The notes under the pieces: generated by a model | Databases searched by the model: none | Told to the model about the DNA's origin: nothing | The model's input: only the letters and a program-made list of their open reading frames with translations | Shown: piece after piece, positions 43,027 through 52,155 of the stretch | How the letters are laid out: each line of letters begins with the position of its first letter | How positions within the stretch are numbered: position 1 is the stretch's first letter | Assembly: GCF_009668025.1 (NCBI RefSeq) | Contig: NZ_WJXZ01000009.1 | Location: 186,001-250,000 of the forward strand | DNA length: 64,000 nt | From: Larkinella terrae | GTDB taxonomy: Bacteria; Bacteroidota; Bacteroidia; Cytophagales; Spirosomataceae | Direction of reading: 5' to 3' | Program-made: the position numbers and the translations under genes

Positions 43027-45447
43027 ATGAAAAGCCGTCTCGCTTCGGTCCATCCACTCCAACTCATTTGCCTGGGCCTGACCGCCCTGCTGGCGTATGG
43101 GTTGCTGGGTTGTGCCATCGGCTATTCCCAATCGGTGTCCGGAAATTTACCCCAGGCCCAGCGTGGCGTTCTGGATCTGCGGACCGTTCCGTTCGATCAG
43201 CAAACGGTGCCCTTAAACGGTACCTGGAAGTGGTATTGGCAAACCATGCTGAAACCCGGCGATTCGGAAACAAATGTAGACTACGCTCCTTTCCCGGAAA
43301 TCTGGAATAAACAGACCCGACAAAACCAGCCCCTGCCCGGTATGGGGTATGCCACGTATGCCTTAACGGTGTTGTTGCCGCCAGCCACTCCCCCACTCGC
43401 TCTCCGGTTACCAGACACGTTTACATCGTACCGCTTATTCCTGAACGGTCAGGAATTAGCTCACAACGGCTCACCCGGCACTTCGAAGGAAACGACCACG
43501 CCCTTCTGGTCGACGCAGGTAAAACCGATTCATCCGACCTCCGACACGCTCCATCTTTTGCTACAAGTAGCTAATTTTCAACACTATAAAGGAGGACCCT
43601 ACCAATCTATTGAATTGGGCAAGGCGGAAGATTTGCTGATCGCCAGAAACCGCGAATGCGCCCTGAGCTTTACATTGGCGGGATGTTTATTCATGGGCGG
43701 ATTGTTTTTTCTTGGCCTGTTTTTGTTTGGTCGTCACGAGATTTCGATCCTGTATTTCTCGCTCTTCTGCCTGCTCTACAGCTACCGGATCGTGGGCAGC
43801 GACCAGTACGCCCTTCACTCCTTATTTCAGGATACTGCCTGGTCCTTGACGCTCCACCTGGAATACCTGTCGCTCTACCTGAGCATAGCGGTTTTTGTTG
43901 TCTATACCGGATCGTTGTACCCGGACGATGTGAATAAAATCGTAATAAAACTTCTGGCGGGAATCTGTCTGGCGTTTGCAGCAGCGACCATTCTGTTTCC
44001 GGCCCGCATTTTTACCCAAATGATCAATCCTTTTCTGGGACTGATGTTTATTTACATTGGCTACGCCTTTTACGTTTACTGGCGGGCCGCTCAGCGCAAA
44101 CGCCCGGGCGCCCGGTATTCGCTAATGAGCACGGCGGTTTTACTGGCAGTATTTATCATCATTATTTTTAAATACTTCCAGATCGCATTTCCCGAAAATG
44201 TCATTCTTTTTGTTGGTTACATAGGCTTCTTCTTTTTGCAATCGCTCGTACTGTCGTTCCGGTTTGCTTATACACTGAAACAGGCAAAAGAACAGGCGGA
44301 AGAAGGGTTGCGGGTAAAAAATGAATTTCTGAGCACCATGAGCCACGAAATCAGAACCCCGCTGAATGCCGTGATCGGGATGAACCATCTGCTGCTCCAG
44401 GATCACCCGCGCCCGGATCAGAAACAACACCTCGACGTCATGCTGTTTTCTGCCAAAAATCTGCTCCACATCGTCAACGACATTCTGGATTTCAACCGGA
44501 TTGAAGGCGGAAAAACCGTTCTGGAAATGATTCCGATGGACCCGGCCACCATCCTGCAAAACGTCGTAAACAGCTACCAGACGGCTGCAGCGGAAAAATC
44601 CTTGCTCCTTAAGGTAACCATCGATCATCGGTTTAAAACCAGAGTAACCGGCGATCCTTCCCGACTCGCTCAGGTCGTTTCCAATCTGGTGCAGAATGCC
44701 ATTAAGTTTACCGAAAAGGGGCAGATCCTGGTGAATCTGATCGTCAATGAAGAGACCGAACACAATATCACCCTCACCCTTGCGGTTGAAGATACCGGTA
44801 TTGGGATTGCGCCCGACAAACAGGAGATGGTTTTTAACCGGTTTACGCAGGCCGATTCGTCCCTGTCCCGCAGTTACGGCGGAACGGGTTTGGGGCTGGC
44901 CATCTGCCGACGGATTCTGGAACTCCAGCATGTTGACCTGCGCCTGCAGAGCCAGCCAGGCAAAGGATCCCGGTTTTATTTCACGCAGACCTTCCCCAAA
45001 ATAACCCCACCACCCGAGTTGGAGCGGGAGCCCGCGCCGGAACCCGAACCAAAACCGATCCCGACCGATAAACCGCTAAAGGGAATTTTCGTACTGCTGG
45101 TGGAAGACAACGCCATGAATGTAATTCTGGCCAAAAACGTCCTCGACCGGCTGGGTGCAACGGTCGAAGTAGCCAGCAATGGGCAGGAAGCCGTCGAAAA
45201 GCTGGATTCGTCGCGGCACCACCTGATTCTGATGGACTTACAAATGCCGGTAATGGACGGATACGAAGCCACCCGCATTATTCGCCAGCGAAACGAAACC
45301 TTGCCCATTATCGCCCTGACGGCCAGCCTGGCCCAGGAAGTGGGTGATCAGACCCAACTGGCCGGTCTGAACGAAGTGCTGGTCAAACCGTATACACCAG
45401 CCAGTCTGATGCAGGTGATCATGCGGCATCTCAAAATTCCAAACTGA
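43027..45447 (+). CDS. 7TM hybrid sensor histidine kinase with receiver
   Basis: An 806-residue hybrid kinase. A signal-like helix (residues 12-32) leads to a periplasmic jelly-roll domain (about 45-200; LNGTWKWYWQ, YATYALTVLLP, SYRLFLNGQEL), as in 7TMR-DISM proteins. Seven membrane helices (about 215-400) follow. The cytosolic part has HisKA with H440 in STMSHEIRTPLNAVIGM, HATPase motifs QNAIKFT, DTGIGIAPDK and GGTGLGLAIC, and a C-terminal receiver with D737 in LILMDLQMPVMDG. The jelly-roll suggests sensing of a carbohydrate or other small ligand. No DNA-binding output is fused, so a separate regulator must act. Confidence 0.9.
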   Translation: MKSRLASVHPLQLICLGLTALLAYGLLGCAIGYSQSVSGNLPQAQRGVLDLRTVPFDQQTVPLNGTWKWYWQTMLKPGDSETNVDYAPFPEIWNKQTRQNQPLPGMGYATYALTVLLPPATPPLALRLPDTFTSYRLFLNGQELAHNGSPGTSKETTTPFWSTQVKPIHPTSDTLHLLLQVANFQHYKGGPYQSIELGKAEDLLIARNRECALSFTLAGCLFMGGLFFLGLFLFGRHEISILYFSLFCLLYSYRIVGSDQYALHSLFQDTAWSLTLHLEYLSLYLSIAVFVVYTGSLYPDDVNKIVIKLLAGICLAFAAATILFPARIFTQMINPFLGLMFIYIGYAFYVYWRAAQRKRPGARYSLMSTAVLLAVFIIIIFKYFQIAFPENVILFVGYIGFFFLQSLVLSFRFAYTLKQAKEQAEEGLRVKNEFLSTMSHEIRTPLNAVIGMNHLLLQDHPRPDQKQHLDVMLFSAKNLLHIVNDILDFNRIEGGKTVLEMIPMDPATILQNVVNSYQTAAAEKSLLLKVTIDHRFKTRVTGDPSRLAQVVSNLVQNAIKFTEKGQILVNLIVNEETEHNITLTLAVEDTGIGIAPDKQEMVFNRFTQADSSLSRSYGGTGLGLAICRRILELQHVDLRLQSQPGKGSRFYFTQTFPKITPPPELEREPAPEPEPKPIPTDKPLKGIFVLLVEDNAMNVILAKNVLDRLGATVEVASNGQEAVEKLDSSRHHLILMDLQMPVMDGYEATRIIRQRNETLPIIALTASLAQEVGDQTQLAGLNEVLVKPYTPASLMQVIMRHLKIPN

Positions 45448-45587: not shown

Positions 45588-47132
45588 ATGACGACTAAAC
45601 CCATCATCCTGGTTGCCAGTGCCAATACGTCTAATCTGACCGATCAGGGCTATCTCAGCGAATTAAAGGACGAAATCAAAAGTCTGAACAATCTATTCGA
45701 TCCGCTGGAGTTGAAAGGCGATCTCATCTACCGGACACCGCTCGAAGGGGCCGACGCCGACGATGTTTTTAAGGCCATTACGGACATTAGCGAGAACCTG
45801 ACCATTTTCCACTACAGCGGCCACGCCAGCCAGACCCATTTTGTATTGACCGACGGCAATTACAATCAGAATCAGTTAATCAAACTGCTGAGTGGTAAAA
45901 AGCCGAAACTGATTTTCCTCAACGGCTGTTCGACGTACGGTTACGTCGAAGCGCTGCTGGATAACGGAGTCGGCGCCGTTATTGCCACCTCCACGGCCGT
46001 GCCCGACGGACAGGCCAGCAAATTCGCCAAAGACTTTTACTACGCCTTTACGAAACCGCTCCGCACCCTCGAACAGGCGTTTGACGAAGCGGTTTCGACC
46101 TTACCCAAACTGGCGGGCCACCAATCGCTGTATTTACGGGGTTCGCTTTCCACCGAATCCCCGGAAACGCCCTGCGCCTGGGGTTTGTATTACCGGAACG
46201 CGGATATTTTAAGCTGGGATTTGCTCAACAAACGCCCGAAAGCTCCCGCGAAAACAACCCTGATTGACCTGCAGAAAGCCTACATCTGTGGCCGGGATGA
46301 TTACCGCACGGCTTTCGATTCGAGTTTCCGCCTGGATGTGCTGAACCGGACGGTGCAACATTACCTGATGGTTGGGGAGGATTACCAGTCTCCGCTCGGC
46401 CTGGCCCGCAAGCTGGTCTACGAAAAAATCACGAACAACACGAATACCAGTTACACTTATCCCTTTAATCCGACCGAAAACCGGACCGTTGAGCTGAATG
46501 GTTCGTACCAGGAGTCCATCAAAATCAATTTCGAAGTTTACAAAGCCCTCAAAGGGCAGAATAAAAGCGACCGGTACGCCTACGAGGACATCATTTCCAT
46601 TCCGGAAGTGCAGCACAGCCAGTTTACCATCGTCGCCCTCCAGATCAAAGCTGATGATTTGAAGGAGAAGAAAGTCGTCGATTCGATCCGGCAGTTCATG
46701 GTTGATTTTCGCCCGCCGGATGACAACGGCAATCCGACCAAACCGCCTTATCTGCTGTTTTTCTGGAACATCATTTACAAGCCCTCGGAAAGCTGGTTCT
46801 CGTCGTTTATCGCCGGAAATCCGGTGAAGAAAATTCTAAAACCGTTCCGGGAGTTCGGCCTTTTCAATCCGGAAGATCTGGAAAAGAGTCCGCTCATTAT
46901 CCTTAACGAAAACGACGAACCGCTGCTCGTGCCGGATGCGGAAGTTGATATTCAGAAGTGGTTGAAAAACAACCTGACCGGTTTTATTTCGCTGGAACGC
47001 ATGCAGTCGGAAGTGGGCAACGCCAAACAACGCGTTTGTGATACAAAAGGAAAAAAAACCGATGCCTCCAAGCTGGAAATCCTGTTCCGGGATCTGATTG
47101 ACGAGATAAACACAAAATCCCAACCTTATTGA
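45588..47132 (+). CDS. CHAT-domain caspase-like protease, putative effector
   Basis: A 514-residue protein with an N-terminal CHAT (caspase HetF-associated with TPRs) peptidase domain, about residues 1-190. The catalytic pair is visible: H79 in IFHYSGHAS and C114 in LIFLNGCSTYGYV. Around them lie typical neighbours (GVGAVIATSTAVPDGQASKF and FYYAFTKPLRTLEQAFDEAV). Residues 225-514 form a second region beginning with LNRTVQHYLMVGEDYQSPLG, which resembles a P-loop NTPase start without GKT. It ends 3 bp before a MoxR ATPase gene, and a vWA-like membrane protein gene follows, so the three form one operon. CHAT proteases act as effectors in defence and cell-death systems; the target here is unknown. 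Confidence 0.82.
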   Translation: MTTKPIILVASANTSNLTDQGYLSELKDEIKSLNNLFDPLELKGDLIYRTPLEGADADDVFKAITDISENLTIFHYSGHASQTHFVLTDGNYNQNQLIKLLSGKKPKLIFLNGCSTYGYVEALLDNGVGAVIATSTAVPDGQASKFAKDFYYAFTKPLRTLEQAFDEAVSTLPKLAGHQSLYLRGSLSTESPETPCAWGLYYRNADILSWDLLNKRPKAPAKTTLIDLQKAYICGRDDYRTAFDSSFRLDVLNRTVQHYLMVGEDYQSPLGLARKLVYEKITNNTNTSYTYPFNPTENRTVELNGSYQESIKINFEVYKALKGQNKSDRYAYEDIISIPEVQHSQFTIVALQIKADDLKEKKVVDSIRQFMVDFRPPDDNGNPTKPPYLLFFWNIIYKPSESWFSSFIAGNPVKKILKPFREFGLFNPEDLEKSPLIILNENDEPLLVPDAEVDIQKWLKNNLTGFISLERMQSEVGNAKQRVCDTKGKKTDASKLEILFRDLIDEINTKSQPY

Positions 47133-47135
47133 CGT

Positions 47136-48197
47136 ATGTCTATTGTCGAAAAATTCGAGTTTGACGAGAAAACGGAGTTGAACGCGCCCCGGATGGAGAA
47201 AAATCCGTCGGATTACATCCTCGACTCAGCGCTTTACAACGCCGTCCGGGTGGCGATTCTGCTTAAACAACCGTTGCTGCTGACCGGCGAACCCGGTACC
47301 GGAAAAACCCGCCTGGCGGAAAAACTGGCAGCCGATCTCCACGCCGAATACCCGACCGAATATTTGAGTAAACCACTGGTGTTTAACACCAAAACCGTCT
47401 CGACTTCCACCGATTTATTTTACCTCTACGACGCATTGGGTCATTTTCATTCCACTCATTTCGACGCCGTAAAACCGGCCGAAAACCCCGCCGACGTTCC
47501 GGCGGGCAAGGTGGTTTCGCTTCCGGAAAAACCGCCCGTTCCCGAGGTTGCCCGGCACATCCGGCTTCAGGCGCTCGGTCAGGCAATTGTGCTGAGTAAC
47601 CAGAGTCTGCTCGAAAAATGTCCGTACCTTCCCATGAAGGACATTGATACGTCGGTCGCCCGGAGTTCGGTGGTGCTGATCGATGAAGTCGACAAGGCTC
47701 CGCGTGATTTTGCGAATGATTTGCTCAATGAACTCGACCGGTTTCGGTTTCAGGTGCGCGAGGACGGCAACGAGGAATACGCCATCGGCACAAAAAACAT
47801 TTTCGTCATCCTGACCAGCAATTCGGAGAAAAGCCTGCCCGATGCCTTCCTGCGCCGGTGTGTTTTCTACCACATTGAGTTTCCAAAGGCCGAGCAATTG
47901 CAGGAAATTGTTCTGAATCAGATTTTTAACAAAATGCCCGAGCTTCAGAACGATGAGACGAAGAAACGGGCCGTCAAACAGACTATCACTGACTACGTTA
48001 ATTTTTTCGTGAGTGTTACCAGCCTGAGCCTGAAGAAGAAACCCGCCACGGCGGAGTTGATCAGTTGGATTTATTACCTGCGCGAAGACATTTTGAACGG
48101 GGATGCTCCGATGGCTTTGGAACCGCAAAAACGCCTGGCCAGCTACAGCATTCTGGCCAAACACGCCGAAGATCTGGAACTTTTAAAGACTCTGTAA
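47136..48197 (+). CDS. MoxR-type AAA+ ATPase
   Basis: A 353-residue AAA+ ATPase of the MoxR group, usually partnered with vWA proteins as chaperone-like remodellers. Walker A is GEPGTGKTRL (51-60), Walker B is VVLIDEVDKAP (D183, E184), sensor 1 is LTSNSEKSLP (N229) and the arginine finger region is AFLRRC (240-241). An insert of about 55 residues (roughly 105-160, with ENPADVPAGKVVSLPEKPPV) between Walker A and B is longer than in standard MoxR. The start lies 3 bp after the CHAT gene stop and the vWA gene begins 18 bp after its own stop, a tight operon. Confidence 0.9.
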   Translation: MSIVEKFEFDEKTELNAPRMEKNPSDYILDSALYNAVRVAILLKQPLLLTGEPGTGKTRLAEKLAADLHAEYPTEYLSKPLVFNTKTVSTSTDLFYLYDALGHFHSTHFDAVKPAENPADVPAGKVVSLPEKPPVPEVARHIRLQALGQAIVLSNQSLLEKCPYLPMKDIDTSVARSSVVLIDEVDKAPRDFANDLLNELDRFRFQVREDGNEEYAIGTKNIFVILTSNSEKSLPDAFLRRCVFYHIEFPKAEQLQEIVLNQIFNKMPELQNDETKKRAVKQTITDYVNFFVSVTSLSLKKKPATAELISWIYYLREDILNGDAPMALEPQKRLASYSILAKHAEDLELLKTL

Positions 48198-48215: not shown

Positions 48216-51200
48216 ATGATTCCTCCATCTCCCCAACGACCGTTGCCACTGGGCGAATTCCTCGAGCAGCTTCGGCTGGACGGTTTTGCCGTGACGCCCG
48301 ACGTCTACGACCGTTGTTTCCGGATTGCCGATGCCTATTTTCCAAACGGTTTGAATAAAGGAGCTGACGCGACGCAACTCCGGGAGTTGCGGGAATTACT
48401 CGGTCCGGTGGTGGCTCGCTCTGAAAATGAACAGGACCAATTCGGAACGATCTTCAACCGGTTTTTCTCCGGTCAAATTTCGGCAGCGGAGATGCCCGAA
48501 GGCAAGCCGATTTCCCCCATCACCCCAAAACTTACCAGCCGGTTGTTCCAATACCTGGGCGCGAGTTTGGCCATTGTCGCCCTCATTGTTGGGTTGTATC
48601 TGGCGAATTCTCAGCATCCTAAAAAGGACGAAGGAGGCAGGCCGGACGATTCAACTACCACTCAGCCTACGGACCAGAACTGCGTTCTCAATGTGTCGGT
48701 GCAATCCATCGCAGGAAATACCGTAACATTTATTAACCGGAGTCCGGGGCTGAAACAAGGGTATCCATATCGGTGGAATTTTGGCGACAGCACAGAGTTG
48801 GTAAACTCGACTGATTCCGTAGTTTCTCATACCTTTTCTCCCTTGAACGAGTCGAGCGTTACAACCATTGGTTTGCGGGAAAAAGGTTGTAACCAAACGG
48901 TTCGGCTGACCAACTTCTCGACCAGTCATCACCGGACTTATCCGTCTTTTCCGCTTATAAAGGCTAAACCGGTGGTGCGGACTGTGTACCTGTTAAACTA
49001 CTGGTATTTGCTGGCATTCGTGCTGCTAGGTTCGGGTGTGGTCGGGTTGATGCTGTACCGGTATTTCTTTTCCGACCAAAAAATCGAGCCCAGCAGTGGT
49101 CCGCCGTATTCCCTGACGTTTCCGGATCAGGAGAAAAACATCAAAGTGACCGACTCGATGGACGTCTGGGCGCGGCAACTGAATCAACGCGATGAAGGGC
49201 AACGGCAGATTATGGACATTTCCCGAACCATTCGGGCTACAGCGCGGATGGGCGGTTATCCCTCCATTTATTACCAGCAAATCAAGGTTCGTCCCCGCTA
49301 CCTGGTGTTGATCGACAGCCGCTCGACCTTTCACCAGCAGGCCCGGCTGTATACCTACCTCAGCAAGGTGCTGGTGGCCGATGAAGTCGAACTCGAAACG
49401 TATTTTTTCAATACCGATCCGCGCACCTGCTGGAATGAAAAATACCCAAAAGGGTTGCCCCTCGGCGATTTGTACCGGTTTCACCGCGACTCCTACCTGG
49501 TTCTGATCACCGACGGCATCCGGCTGATCGATTATTCCAATGGCACCCTCAGCGCCTGGGTGAGCAATTTGCTCGGCAACTGGGAAAACCGCGCCCTCCT
49601 GACGCCGGTTTATCCCGAAAACTGGACGTACATCGAAGCCATTCTGACCCAATTTTTCATCGTTCTTCCGGCCACACCCGACGGTCAGTTACTCCTGCGC
49701 GATTATTTTCAACTCGGCGAATTGCCCACGTTTAAAGAATTAAGGCAGCGGTTTCAGGTCAATCCCGACGCCGTGCCTGATCGTGGTTTCTTCGGAAAGT
49801 CGGCGGAACAACTGAAAGAAGTCGATATCAATTCCTTTCTGGAAAACCCGTTCGATACAGAAAAACTGTCCGAACAGGAGGTCAACCGCCTGAAACAATG
49901 GGCGTATGCAACGGCGGTTTACCCCACTCCTACCTGGGAAATGACGCTTTCGATCGGGAAAGCGATTGAACAATATTACCGAACCGATGCGCTCGTGACG
50001 ACAACGAATCTCTTGAAAATCACCGCGTTGCCGTGGTTACAACAAAGTAAAATACCGGATCAGCTTCGCCAGCAAATGCTCCAGCGTTTCCAGGAATTCC
50101 CGCCGGAACTCAAAAGCCGGATTCAGAACGAGGTGCTGGCATTGCTGGATTCGGTTAAAACAAGGCCGGGAAGTCTGGCCGAAGAAGAACGGCAATTGCA
50201 CACCTACCAGGTCATGCTAACGGACGAAAAGCAGCGGCAGGCCGGTTTGCGCAACCTGGATGCTTACCAAAAAGCCGGTTTGATTCGGGACAAGGTTACC
50301 GATGGCGCGGTGTCGACGCATCGGCGTCAGCGGAGCCTTGCTTACCTGCTCTCGCTGGGCATCGTAGCGGTTTTGCTATACCTGCTGGGGACGCAAACAC
50401 CCGCCGGAAAAGAGGGAACGCCATTGGCCGCGCTGGGCAAGCTGCTCTATTCCCGAAGCGATTCGACGGTTTCGGACAGTGCGCTGTTTTACAACAACCT
50501 GGCCGCATCGCTCCCGCTGGAAAGTCTGAAAAACCCGGACAGCCTGACGCGCATCCGCCGGATTGGTGAATCGCTTGGGTATCAGTTCCAACGCCCGCTG
50601 CCAAACCAACTGCCGACACAATCCGGTTACAGCATTCCGGTCAATCAATCCGAATTGTACAGTTTAAAATTGGTTTTTCTGCGGGCCTCCCTGCGCATCC
50701 GGAATTCTTTCGAAGCTCTCTACAACCTGCACGCGCTGCGGTACGAACGCAGCTCCATCGTCCAGAAAGGCTCGGATGAAGAATCTATTTTGGACTCCAT
50801 TGCCCGGAAAATAGTCGCTCCCACCTCCTGGTATTCCGCACCCGGTTTTTTTCCGAAAGATTCATCGGTTATCGCTTTTCTTAAACTGCTGAACCAAAAT
50901 CAGGCGCCAGATTCCCTGCTCAAACAGCTTGATTTGCTGGACAGTTACGGAGCGCACATGCGCTATGGGAATCAGTATAAGGACGGCATTGTCGGAGTCA
51001 GGACGCAGCAGGCCATCAACCGCACCAAACAGGAACTGGAAACTGCCCAAACCTCGGCCCGCTTTAATCGCGTCGTCCTGTATCTCCCTGAAGCTCCCCG
51101 CACCAAAAGTGTGCTGACGCTCCCGCTTCCCCGCCTAAATCTGTCAGCAAACCAGACCGACTCCCTCGCCCAGCTCGATGCCGCCTGGATTCGATTTGTG

Positions 51201-51983
51201 TTGGAAGGCACGACTTCCACAACCGTAACGTCGGAGCCGCCGGTTCCGGAAACGGCGGCCGGCATTCCGGGGGAGTACGGCGTTTTGGTGGGCGAACTAA
51301 CGCAATACCAGACGATTGGCAATAAACTGTATCTCCTGGTTGAAGCGGGTTCTCAATCGTACCGGGTGTTTATTGGTCAGGAATCTACGCAGTCTGAACC
51401 AAATGCCGCGATCCGGCAGGAGCCCTACAAAAAAAGTAAATCCGGTTTTTCGATGGCGAAACCCAATTCATTCGACTCACCGGTTTTTGCCTTCGCGGAA
51501 GGCCAGATTCTGTCGAAACTGGATTCGTATCAGAAGGTAAGAGGCCGAAAACCAGGCTTTTATTCGCTGACGAAAACCCCGGATGCCGGGGCGCTGGACT
51601 ACCTCCAGGCCGGTGGATTGTACCAGCAATTTAAGGTCGATCGGAACCGGAACATCGACGATGTCAGTACTTATATTACCAACGGAGGTTATTTACCAAT
51701 CCGGATTTACGTCTGGGGAGCGCGCTGGAAACCCCAAACGACGGATCCGTATTTCAAATTGGGTCGTGACTTTTACGAAATAAATTACGTCCACCAGAAT
51801 CAGGGTTCGCCGGAAACATCTTCAAACCGGAATGCGCCCTGGCAGGACGGCGGGGTGATTGTTGAAGCGAGCCCGAAAAATCCGCAAACGTTAAAAGCCG
51901 TTGCCCTGCGGTTTTCGTCGCAATCGACCAGTGTTGATAAAAAAGGCAATCCGACCAGCGGCAGCACGGGCGCTGCGTTTTAA
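48216..51983 (+). CDS. Three-TM protein with PKD, vWA-like and PG-binding-like regions
   Basis: A 1255-residue membrane protein, third gene of the CHAT-MoxR operon. Residues 1-100 are cytosolic helices (LGEFLEQLRLDGFAVTPDVY) like the N terminus of MoxR-linked vWA proteins. TM1 (113-130) leads to a periplasmic PKD-like domain (156-225; PYRWNFGDSTELVNS, VSHTFS) flanked by Cys156 and Cys225, a possible disulfide. TM2 (262-284) returns to a cytosolic vWA-like domain (360-485; YLVLIDSRSTF, YLVLITDGIRLID). Its MIDAS is degenerate: D367-S-R-S-T rather than DxSxS, though D433 is kept. TM3 (707-725) leads to a periplasmic C-terminal half that includes DGIVGVRTQQAI (923-934), like peptidoglycan-binding domain 1. 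The topology is self-consistent. Overall function is unknown. Confidence 0.75.
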   Translation: MIPPSPQRPLPLGEFLEQLRLDGFAVTPDVYDRCFRIADAYFPNGLNKGADATQLRELRELLGPVVARSENEQDQFGTIFNRFFSGQISAAEMPEGKPISPITPKLTSRLFQYLGASLAIVALIVGLYLANSQHPKKDEGGRPDDSTTTQPTDQNCVLNVSVQSIAGNTVTFINRSPGLKQGYPYRWNFGDSTELVNSTDSVVSHTFSPLNESSVTTIGLREKGCNQTVRLTNFSTSHHRTYPSFPLIKAKPVVRTVYLLNYWYLLAFVLLGSGVVGLMLYRYFFSDQKIEPSSGPPYSLTFPDQEKNIKVTDSMDVWARQLNQRDEGQRQIMDISRTIRATARMGGYPSIYYQQIKVRPRYLVLIDSRSTFHQQARLYTYLSKVLVADEVELETYFFNTDPRTCWNEKYPKGLPLGDLYRFHRDSYLVLITDGIRLIDYSNGTLSAWVSNLLGNWENRALLTPVYPENWTYIEAILTQFFIVLPATPDGQLLLRDYFQLGELPTFKELRQRFQVNPDAVPDRGFFGKSAEQLKEVDINSFLENPFDTEKLSEQEVNRLKQWAYATAVYPTPTWEMTLSIGKAIEQYYRTDALVTTTNLLKITALPWLQQSKIPDQLRQQMLQRFQEFPPELKSRIQNEVLALLDSVKTRPGSLAEEERQLHTYQVMLTDEKQRQAGLRNLDAYQKAGLIRDKVTDGAVSTHRRQRSLAYLLSLGIVAVLLYLLGTQTPAGKEGTPLAALGKLLYSRSDSTVSDSALFYNNLAASLPLESLKNPDSLTRIRRIGESLGYQFQRPLPNQLPTQSGYSIPVNQSELYSLKLVFLRASLRIRNSFEALYNLHALRYERSSIVQKGSDEESILDSIARKIVAPTSWYSAPGFFPKDSSVIAFLKLLNQNQAPDSLLKQLDLLDSYGAHMRYGNQYKDGIVGVRTQQAINRTKQELETAQTSARFNRVVLYLPEAPRTKSVLTLPLPRLNLSANQTDSLAQLDAAWIRFVLEGTTSTTVTSEPPVPETAAGIPGEYGVLVGELTQYQTIGNKLYLLVEAGSQSYRVFIGQESTQSEPNAAIRQEPYKKSKSGFSMAKPNSFDSPVFAFAEGQILSKLDSYQKVRGRKPGFYSLTKTPDAGALDYLQAGGLYQQFKVDRNRNIDDVSTYITNGGYLPIRIYVWGARWKPQTTDPYFKLGRDFYEINYVHQNQGSPETSSNRNAPWQDGGVIVEASPKNPQTLKAVALRFSSQSTSVDKKGNPTSGSTGAAF

Positions 51984-52155
51984 CGCTGATTTTCGCAAAA
52001 CGGCTTCGACCGTGTCAGCCGCGTTTCTAAGCAAAATCCGTTTCGACGAATACGAACGGGCGAGCTGGTTTGCAAACAAATCGGAAATCGCCAAGCCGCA
52101 TTTTGAAAAGCGGGGAATAAAAGCCGGTAAAACCACTTTTAATCGAGCAGATTCA

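What the first reader, a model, noticed from the sequence alone, without database searches (positions are those of the whole stretch)
48216..51983. Alternating-topology vWA-like protein with a degenerate MIDAS
Three hydrophobic segments place the PKD-like domain and the C-terminal half outside and the vWA-like domain inside. The MIDAS reads D-S-R-S-T instead of DxSxS, with the later Asp (TDG) kept. Two Cys residues flank the PKD domain and none of the cytosolic vWA motif is Cys-linked. DGIVGVRTQQAI near residue 923 looks like the core of a peptidoglycan-binding domain. I know no named family with this exact order.
Basis: partly seen in the sequence, partly recalled or inferred. Interest (0 to 1): 0.65.

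Follow-up and report, generated by a model that had tools for sequence, protein, structure and literature searches.

The report
Membrane-anchored bacterial defence-switch protein
This large membrane protein looks like one part of a three-gene bacterial module of a known, predicted self-defence type, with an altered metal-binding site and a tail domain of unknown activity that make it an unusual version.

Summary
The ORF is real (48216-51983 +, 1255 aa), with three hydrophobic segments. It is the last gene of an operon with a caspase-like (CHAT) + iSTAND protein (45588-47132) and a MoxR AAA+ ATPase (47136-48197): the make-up of an iSTAND-class MoxR-vWA ternary system (Kaur et al. 2020, PMC7159879), predicted to act against invaders. 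The vWA assignment holds: its family profile matches CoxE-type vWA proteins (hhalign 96.2% and 62.6%; control 0.4%). The altered MIDAS is no single-genome oddity: Arg replaces the first Ser of DxSxS in 8 of 14 homologues, one supported branch; D367 is invariant. The 'kept' later Asp is not conserved (D 3, E 7, N 3, T 1 of 14). The peptidoglycan-binding core is not supported. The cassette is in 6 of 9 genus genomes and absent between the same neighbours in 2. Likeliest function: ATP-driven, protease-linked switch at the inner membrane deploying a variable effector. Function is inferred, not tested.

The parts
45588..47132 (+). third component, 514 aa: N-terminal caspase-like CHAT domain plus iSTAND (inactive STAND) domain
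   Evidence: Pfam CHAT 24.6 bits (cut-off 24) and iSTAND 31 bits (cut-off 24); H75, H79 and C114 kept in 10 of 10 aligned sequences, one of them from a second locus of G106
47136..48197 (+). MoxR-type AAA+ ATPase, 353 aa
   Evidence: Pfam AAA_5 E 5.3e-13; Walker A, Walker B, sensor 1 and Arg-finger stretch kept in 14 of 14 homologues
48216..51983 (+). vWA component, 1255 aa, the finding
48216..48500 (+). N-terminal four-helix domain (residues 1-95)
   Evidence: AlphaFold2 helices 12-21, 28-41, 52-66, 70-84; block pLDDT 55-78 over residues 11-90
48681..48917 (+). PKD-like domain between hydrophobic segments 1 and 2 (about residues 156-234), with C156 and C225
   Evidence: sub-threshold Pfam hit in the window, over cut-off in the homologous ORF of L066; strands 160-231, block pLDDT 57-65 for 161-210 and about 40 for 211-230; not present in L063, L064, L065
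49092..49715 (+). vWA domain with lead-in (residues 293-500); D367, R369, T371, D433, G434
   Evidence: profile-profile match to CoxE vWA proteins (control 90), genome hits, conservation
49716..50327 (+). helical region (residues 501-704), probably the vWA-L linker
   Evidence: position and predicted helices (low confidence); vWA-L named in PMC8195603; inference
50418..51257 (+). region after segment 3 (residues 735-1014), no family match; holds the DGIVGVRTQQAI stretch
51264..51965 (+). DUF2278 domain (residues 1017-1250)
   Evidence: Pfam E 2.6e-17 over residues 1087-1244, start extended by alignment to standalone copies; D1128, Y1129, H1193, N1195, Q1196, G1197, N1206, W1209, Q1210, D1211, G1212, Q1236 kept in 6 of 6 fused and 30 of 30 standalone copies
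52030..52110 (+). 27-codon remnant of the GH92 gene that borders the cassette in four relatives (outside the system)
   Evidence: tblastn 70% identity, E 3.9e-7; GH92 assignment in two relatives

Best explanation
The protein is the vWA co-chaperone/effector component of an iSTAND-class MoxR-vWA ternary system. Shown by sequence: a compact three-gene operon; a caspase-like protease with an intact His/Cys pair fused to an iSTAND domain; a MoxR ATPase with intact motifs; a CoxE-type vWA domain with Arg in place of the first MIDAS Ser; three hydrophobic segments; and a C-terminal DUF2278 domain that keeps twelve residues invariant in its family. Inferred: the vWA domain sits on the cytosolic MoxR ring at the inner membrane; the loop between segments 1 and 2 (PKD-like in some relatives, short in others) and the DUF2278 end face the periplasm; the iSTAND/caspase protein senses an invader or envelope signal; ATP-driven remodelling and proteolysis then release or reposition the DUF2278 effector, giving containment or death of the infected cell. 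The Arg probably makes the vWA contact less dependent on, or independent of, a bound metal.
For: Domain hits for CHAT, iSTAND, AAA/MoxR and DUF2278; same gene order in 6 of 6 Larkinella loci and in G213 and G106; catalytic and Walker motifs intact; vWA relation to CoxE (control 90). Swapped modules as described for this class: third component with CHAT or with DUF4062; C-terminal end with DUF2278 (6 of 14 members), TPR (3), WD40 (1) or, in L003, cut off before the DUF2278 position. Cassette in 6 of 9 genus genomes; in G133 and G135 the neighbouring histidine kinase and GH92 genes lie 71 bases apart without it. Published description of TM segments, four-helix N-terminus and variable C-terminus in this class.
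Against: PADLOC's defence models give no match at E 1 for the vWA protein or the third component, and only general ATPase matches for MoxR. I saw no experiment on this class in the passages read. A Met stands just before the domain in 30 of 30 standalone DUF2278 copies (no signal-peptide program was run), so they look cytosolic and an envelope-side DUF2278 is unexpected. The window's own charge pattern does not support segments 1 and 2 in the stated orientation. The AlphaFold2 model of the vWA part had block pLDDT 21-38. VWA_CoxE finds nothing in the window's own genome, and only 2 of the 4 strongest VWA_CoxE loci (L090-L093) were matched by my vWA profile. Pfam's iSTAND model gives no match at E 0.05 for the third components of L066, L067 and L068, which match the window's protein by BLAST (E 5e-45, 2e-27, 5e-38).
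Confidence: 0.7

Rival explanations
1. It is a housekeeping MoxR/vWA chaperone pair, like NorQ/NorD or RavA/ViaA, that matures an envelope enzyme; the adjacent protease trims the client.
For: MoxR plus a vWA protein is the make-up of such maturation pairs (PMC9976466 passages); PADLOC gives no defence match for two of the three genes.
Against: The cassette is absent from 3 of 9 genus genomes; none of the five window neighbours tested was found in the fetched loci of other genera; the C-terminal and third-component modules are swapped; a caspase-like plus iSTAND gene is not part of those pairs (recalled).
Confidence: 0.15
2. It is a signalling output of the neighbouring hybrid histidine kinase (43027-45447), a regulated envelope-stress switch rather than a defence system.
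For: The kinase gene lies directly upstream in 6 of 6 cassette-bearing Larkinella loci (window).
Against: The kinase is present in 9 of 9 genus genomes, the cassette in 6; at E 1e-20 no kinase relative appears in the fetched loci of other genera, some of which are short.
Confidence: 0.1
3. The vWA domain is a dead scaffold: the altered MIDAS is decay, and the protein only anchors the complex.
For: The second acidic position (D 3, E 7, N 3, T 1) and the last Ser/Thr position (T 6, V 3, A 2, I 2, S 1) vary.
Against: D367 and G434 are kept in 14 of 14, and the vWA region with its lead-in is the best conserved part within the genus (72-82% identity to the window, against 46-47% for DUF2278 in the four relatives that have it).
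Confidence: 0.15

Closest known systems
iSTAND MoxR-vWA ternary systems (Kaur et al. 2020, PMC7159879)
   Same: MoxR, vWA protein and iSTAND third component with N-terminal peptidase; four-helix N-terminus; TM segments; variable C-terminal effector
   Different: Arg in the MIDAS of one branch; the passage of section 8 that I saw names loss of Asp only for the FtsH and beta-propeller classes; 'DUF2278' and 'PKD' do not occur in the main text; its source data were not read
CoxE-type vWA proteins (Pfam VWA_CoxE)
   Same: homologous vWA domain, D367 in register with the Asp of DVSxS
   Different: Ser to Arg at the next MIDAS position in this branch; TM segments and effector fused
NorQ/NorD (PMC9976466, passages only)
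   Same: MoxR-vWA pairing; exchange of MIDAS residues in NorD spares binding to NorQ but abolishes activity of the target
   Different: conserved MIDAS residues in NorD; no caspase/iSTAND partner in the passages seen
DUF2278 family (Pfam PF10042; B. subtilis matches it; the name YukJ is recalled)
   Same: twelve family-invariant residues kept
   Different: standalone proteins there; a fused domain after a hydrophobic segment here, with other standalone-conserved positions changed

Membership tests
iSTAND MoxR-vWA ternary system | MoxR AAA+ ATPase with intact NTPase motifs | tested here: met
   14 of 14
iSTAND MoxR-vWA ternary system | third component with iSTAND core | tested here: met
   PF19995 31 bits against cut-off 24
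iSTAND MoxR-vWA ternary system | peptidase or nucleotide-signal domain fused N-terminally to iSTAND | tested here: met
   CHAT 24.6 bits against cut-off 24; His/Cys pair kept 10 of 10
iSTAND MoxR-vWA ternary system | vWA component with four-helix N-terminal domain related to CoxE | tested here: inconclusive
   four helices predicted; relation to the CoxE N-terminus not tested
iSTAND MoxR-vWA ternary system | variable C-terminal effector on the vWA component | tested here: met
   DUF2278 6, TPR 3, WD40 1 of 14; none in L003
iSTAND MoxR-vWA ternary system | MoxR lacks the N- and C-terminal extensions of VMAP systems | not tested
   no VMAP MoxR compared
iSTAND MoxR-vWA ternary system | anti-invader function | not testable with these tools
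   needs experiment; PADLOC models give no match for two of the three proteins
vWA domain with canonical MIDAS | vWA homology | tested here: met
   hhalign 96.2% to a CoxE-like set of 5 (two of them found with this profile), 62.6% to 3 Pfam-found members; control 0.4%
vWA domain with canonical MIDAS | DxSxS motif | tested here: not met
   DSRST
PG_binding_1 | profile match at residues 905-945 | tested here: not met
   no match at E 1 for the whole protein nor at E 0.01 for residues 735-1017; motif not conserved
PKD domain | Pfam match over cut-off | tested here: inconclusive
   14.8 bits against 27 here; 43.9 in the L066 ORF
DUF2278 | Pfam match over cut-off and invariant residues | tested here: met
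   63.9 bits against 25; twelve residues 6 of 6 and 30 of 30

The most novel reading that the evidence does not exclude
A branch of MoxR-vWA systems has replaced the MIDAS metal contact by a built-in arginine, giving a metal-free vWA switch, and uses it to pass a signal from an envelope sensor loop through a cytosolic ATPase/caspase complex back out to a DUF2278 effector in the periplasm.
Probability: 0.22. Interest if true: 0.65.

Novelty: new variant of a known kind. Interest (0 to 1): 0.38.

Why it matters
It places an apparent orphan protein in a known predicted conflict system and gives a natural series in which the same vWA position is Ser or Arg, so the need for the MIDAS metal in MoxR-vWA machines becomes directly testable. 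It also links DUF2278, a name found in no paper of the library searched (the gene name YukJ was found in 31, none opened), to such a system as a swappable C-terminal module.

Tried and rejected
Peptidoglycan-binding core at residue 923: rejected. AlphaFold2 models: the first (residues 1-790) had mean pLDDT 39.2, usable only for the four-helix and, weakly, the PKD-like part; the second (735-1255) had 32.7 and was not used. PDB sequence searches with the protein, the whole alignment, the vWA alignment and the DUF2278 alignment gave no relevant match. NCBIfam MadB (E 8.4e-21, 74.4 bits against a cut-off of 475) was read as general AAA+ similarity. The upstream histidine kinase was considered as a component and dropped. 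Promoter and terminator scans found no more than shuffles. Paper listings led to one paper opened (PMC9976466). A first DUF2278 comparison used too strict a filter and kept 2 of 30 loci; it was repeated with all 30. A first six-frame scan of L078-L103 covered one strand only and was repeated on both.
Full report
OBSERVATION. The reading frame 48216-51983 (+) is open and codes for 1255 residues. A hydropathy scan of my own gives three hydrophobic stretches, 110-128, 253-271 and 708-726 (no dedicated topology program was available). Among 14 homologue rows, 10 have three, L068, L071 and L010 two, and L066 one; L066 is split into several ORFs of which I used the vWA-bearing one, and L010 is cut by its contig. 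The charge pattern supports segment 3 well (11 of 12 rows), segment 2 fairly (10 of 12, the window being against), and segment 1 weakly (8 of 13). The MIDAS stretch reads D367-S-R-S-T.

CONTEXT. The gene is the last of three closely packed genes. The first (45588-47132) carries a CHAT (caspase-like) domain and an iSTAND domain, both over Pfam's cut-offs, CHAT only just; the second (47136-48197) is a MoxR-type AAA+ ATPase. In the other 5 Larkinella loci and in the loci of G213 and G106 the three genes stand in the same order; in G159 they are spread over two short contigs. Kaur et al. 2020 (PMC7159879; I saw the outline with abstract, the whole of section 20, part 1 of 2 of section 35, and passages found by term) define the iSTAND ternary systems by these three components and report for them a four-helix N-terminal domain on the vWA protein, N-terminal TM segments in about 28% of cases, a highly variable C-terminal effector region and TM-preceded cell-wall domains. 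PMC8195603 (passages only) names a helical linker, vWA-L, between vWA and effector. PMC12839542 (passages only) repeats the sensor role proposed for iSTAND.

IS IT A vWA DOMAIN? The window protein alone matches no vWA family, and VWA_CoxE finds nothing in its whole genome. Its family does better: VWA_CoxE is matched by 3 of 14 members, best E 1.2e-4 (this is L071, 22.1 bits, below the cut-off of 26.4). A profile of residues 293-500 from the 14 members, run over 390 genomes of the order, finds 15 with a match at E 1e-5 or better, three of which (G000, G112, G216) hold rows of the profile itself; most of the rest are short proteins of about 400 residues. One of these, G157:C32, is also found over the cut-off by the Pfam model. 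Of the four strongest VWA_CoxE loci (L090-L093) the profile matches two, L092 (E 3e-6) and L091 (E 3e-4). Profile-profile comparison gives 96.2% (E 2.1e-9) against five CoxE-like proteins, two of which had been found with this same profile, and 62.6% (E 7.2e-5) against three members found by Pfam; an unrelated control (DUF2278 against CoxE) gives 0.4%. The registers agree: D367 pairs with the Asp of DVSxS and R369 with its first Ser. The AlphaFold2 model was too poor in this part to judge.

THE MIDAS. Over 14 homologues D367 is kept in 14; the next motif position is Arg in 8 and Ser in 6; the last is T 6, V 3, A 2, I 2, S 1; the later acidic position is E 7, D 3, N 3, T 1; G434 is kept in 14. 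The eight Arg-bearing proteins form one side of one branch (support 95/96; 22 rows, rooted at the midpoint for drawing only, several long branches flagged by the program). Because the CoxE relatives carry Ser or Gly there, Arg is probably the derived state. Seven of the eight also carry Glu for the later Asp; the window is the exception. In NorD, exchange of MIDAS residues spares binding to the ATPase but abolishes activity of the target (PMC9976466, passages). I infer that in this branch the client contact is made without, or with less help from, a metal. In the passage of Kaur et al. that I saw, loss of Asp is named for the FtsH and beta-propeller classes only.

THE ENDS. The Cys-flanked PKD-like domain is seen in 4 rows (window, L002, L003, L010); Pfam's PKD matches 5 of 14 members at E 0.1, which the call does not name, and L003 has no match at E 0.05. 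L063, L064 and L065 have only 58 residues in the corresponding stretch. At the C-terminus Pfam finds DUF2278 in 6 of 14 members, TPR in 3 and WD40 in one, L068; L010 and L071 have no named C-terminal domain at E 0.05. L003 ends before the domain, with no trace of it found downstream. Residues D1128, Y1129, H1193, N1195, Q1196, G1197, N1206, W1209, Q1210, D1211, G1212 and Q1236 are kept in 6 of 6 fused and 30 of 30 standalone copies, although a good number of other positions invariant in the standalone copies differ, among them W and H at 1115-1116. The 30 were the loci returned; 67 of 395 genomes had a match. So the domain may well be functional. No paper in the library holds the word DUF2278. 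Of the DGIVGVRTQQAI stretch the first half lies in columns that are gaps in the other 13 rows, and the rest is not conserved.

THE CASSETTE. A MoxR match at E 1e-50 or better is found in 6 of 9 genus genomes, a relative of the upstream histidine kinase at 63% identity or more in 9 of 9. In G133 and G135 the kinase gene is followed 71 bases later by a GH92 gene; in L002, L063, L064 and L065 the three genes stand between these two. In L003 no GH92 gene was found after the cassette, in the window only a 27-codon remnant is left, at 52030-52110, and in G139 the kinase has other neighbours. Third components of four distant loci carry DUF4062 instead of CHAT (L069, L070, L072, L073), with iSTAND over the cut-off in two of the four (L070, L073). 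Loss of the cassette and gain of it are both possible.

HOW IT PROBABLY WORKS. Inference: MoxR ring and vWA domain form an ATP-driven switch in the cytosol, anchored by three membrane segments; the caspase/iSTAND protein senses and cuts; the envelope-side DUF2278 end is the effector. Two tensions: standalone DUF2278 copies have a conserved Met just before the domain and so look cytosolic, which makes the envelope location the weakest part of the model; and PADLOC's defence models match neither the vWA protein nor the third component.

LIMITS. Homologues come from 222 genomes of the family, 14 with a match including the window's own; all 14 were used. The Pfam iSTAND model is weak: over 395 phylum genomes it found 2, the window's own among them, and it missed third components that BLAST finds. 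Paper searches for iSTAND with vWA gave 3 papers and for MoxR, vWA, anti-phage and ATPase gave 5; among the passages read I saw no experimental test of an iSTAND system. The source data of Kaur et al. were not open to me, so DUF2278 may already be listed there.

Noticed in passing
window 52030-52110: Remnant of a GH92 glycosidase gene that stands at the same place in four relatives.
   Followed up: partly
L079, ORF on the - strand, 1-2658: A vWA relative (G767) is fused in one frame to a bacterial sugar transferase domain (Bac_transf E 4.3e-40), cut by the locus end: an unusual C-terminal module.
   Followed up: partly
L066 8634-13017: The vWA protein of G213 is split into three overlapping ORFs (N-terminal, PKD repeats, vWA onwards); could be natural splitting or frameshifts.
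   Followed up: no
L068 1-2833, - strand: A second MoxR gene (cut by the locus end) with a CHAT-like partner (17.7 bits, under cut-off) lies next to the main system in G106.
   Followed up: no
window 43027-45447: 7TMR-DISM hybrid histidine kinase with receiver domain, found in 9 of 9 genus genomes, directly upstream of the cassette.
   Followed up: partly
L069-L073: Four of these five loci carry DUF4062, with or without a detected iSTAND domain, as third component; in L071 no ORF over 200 aa was found within 2.5 kb upstream on the same strand.
   Followed up: partly
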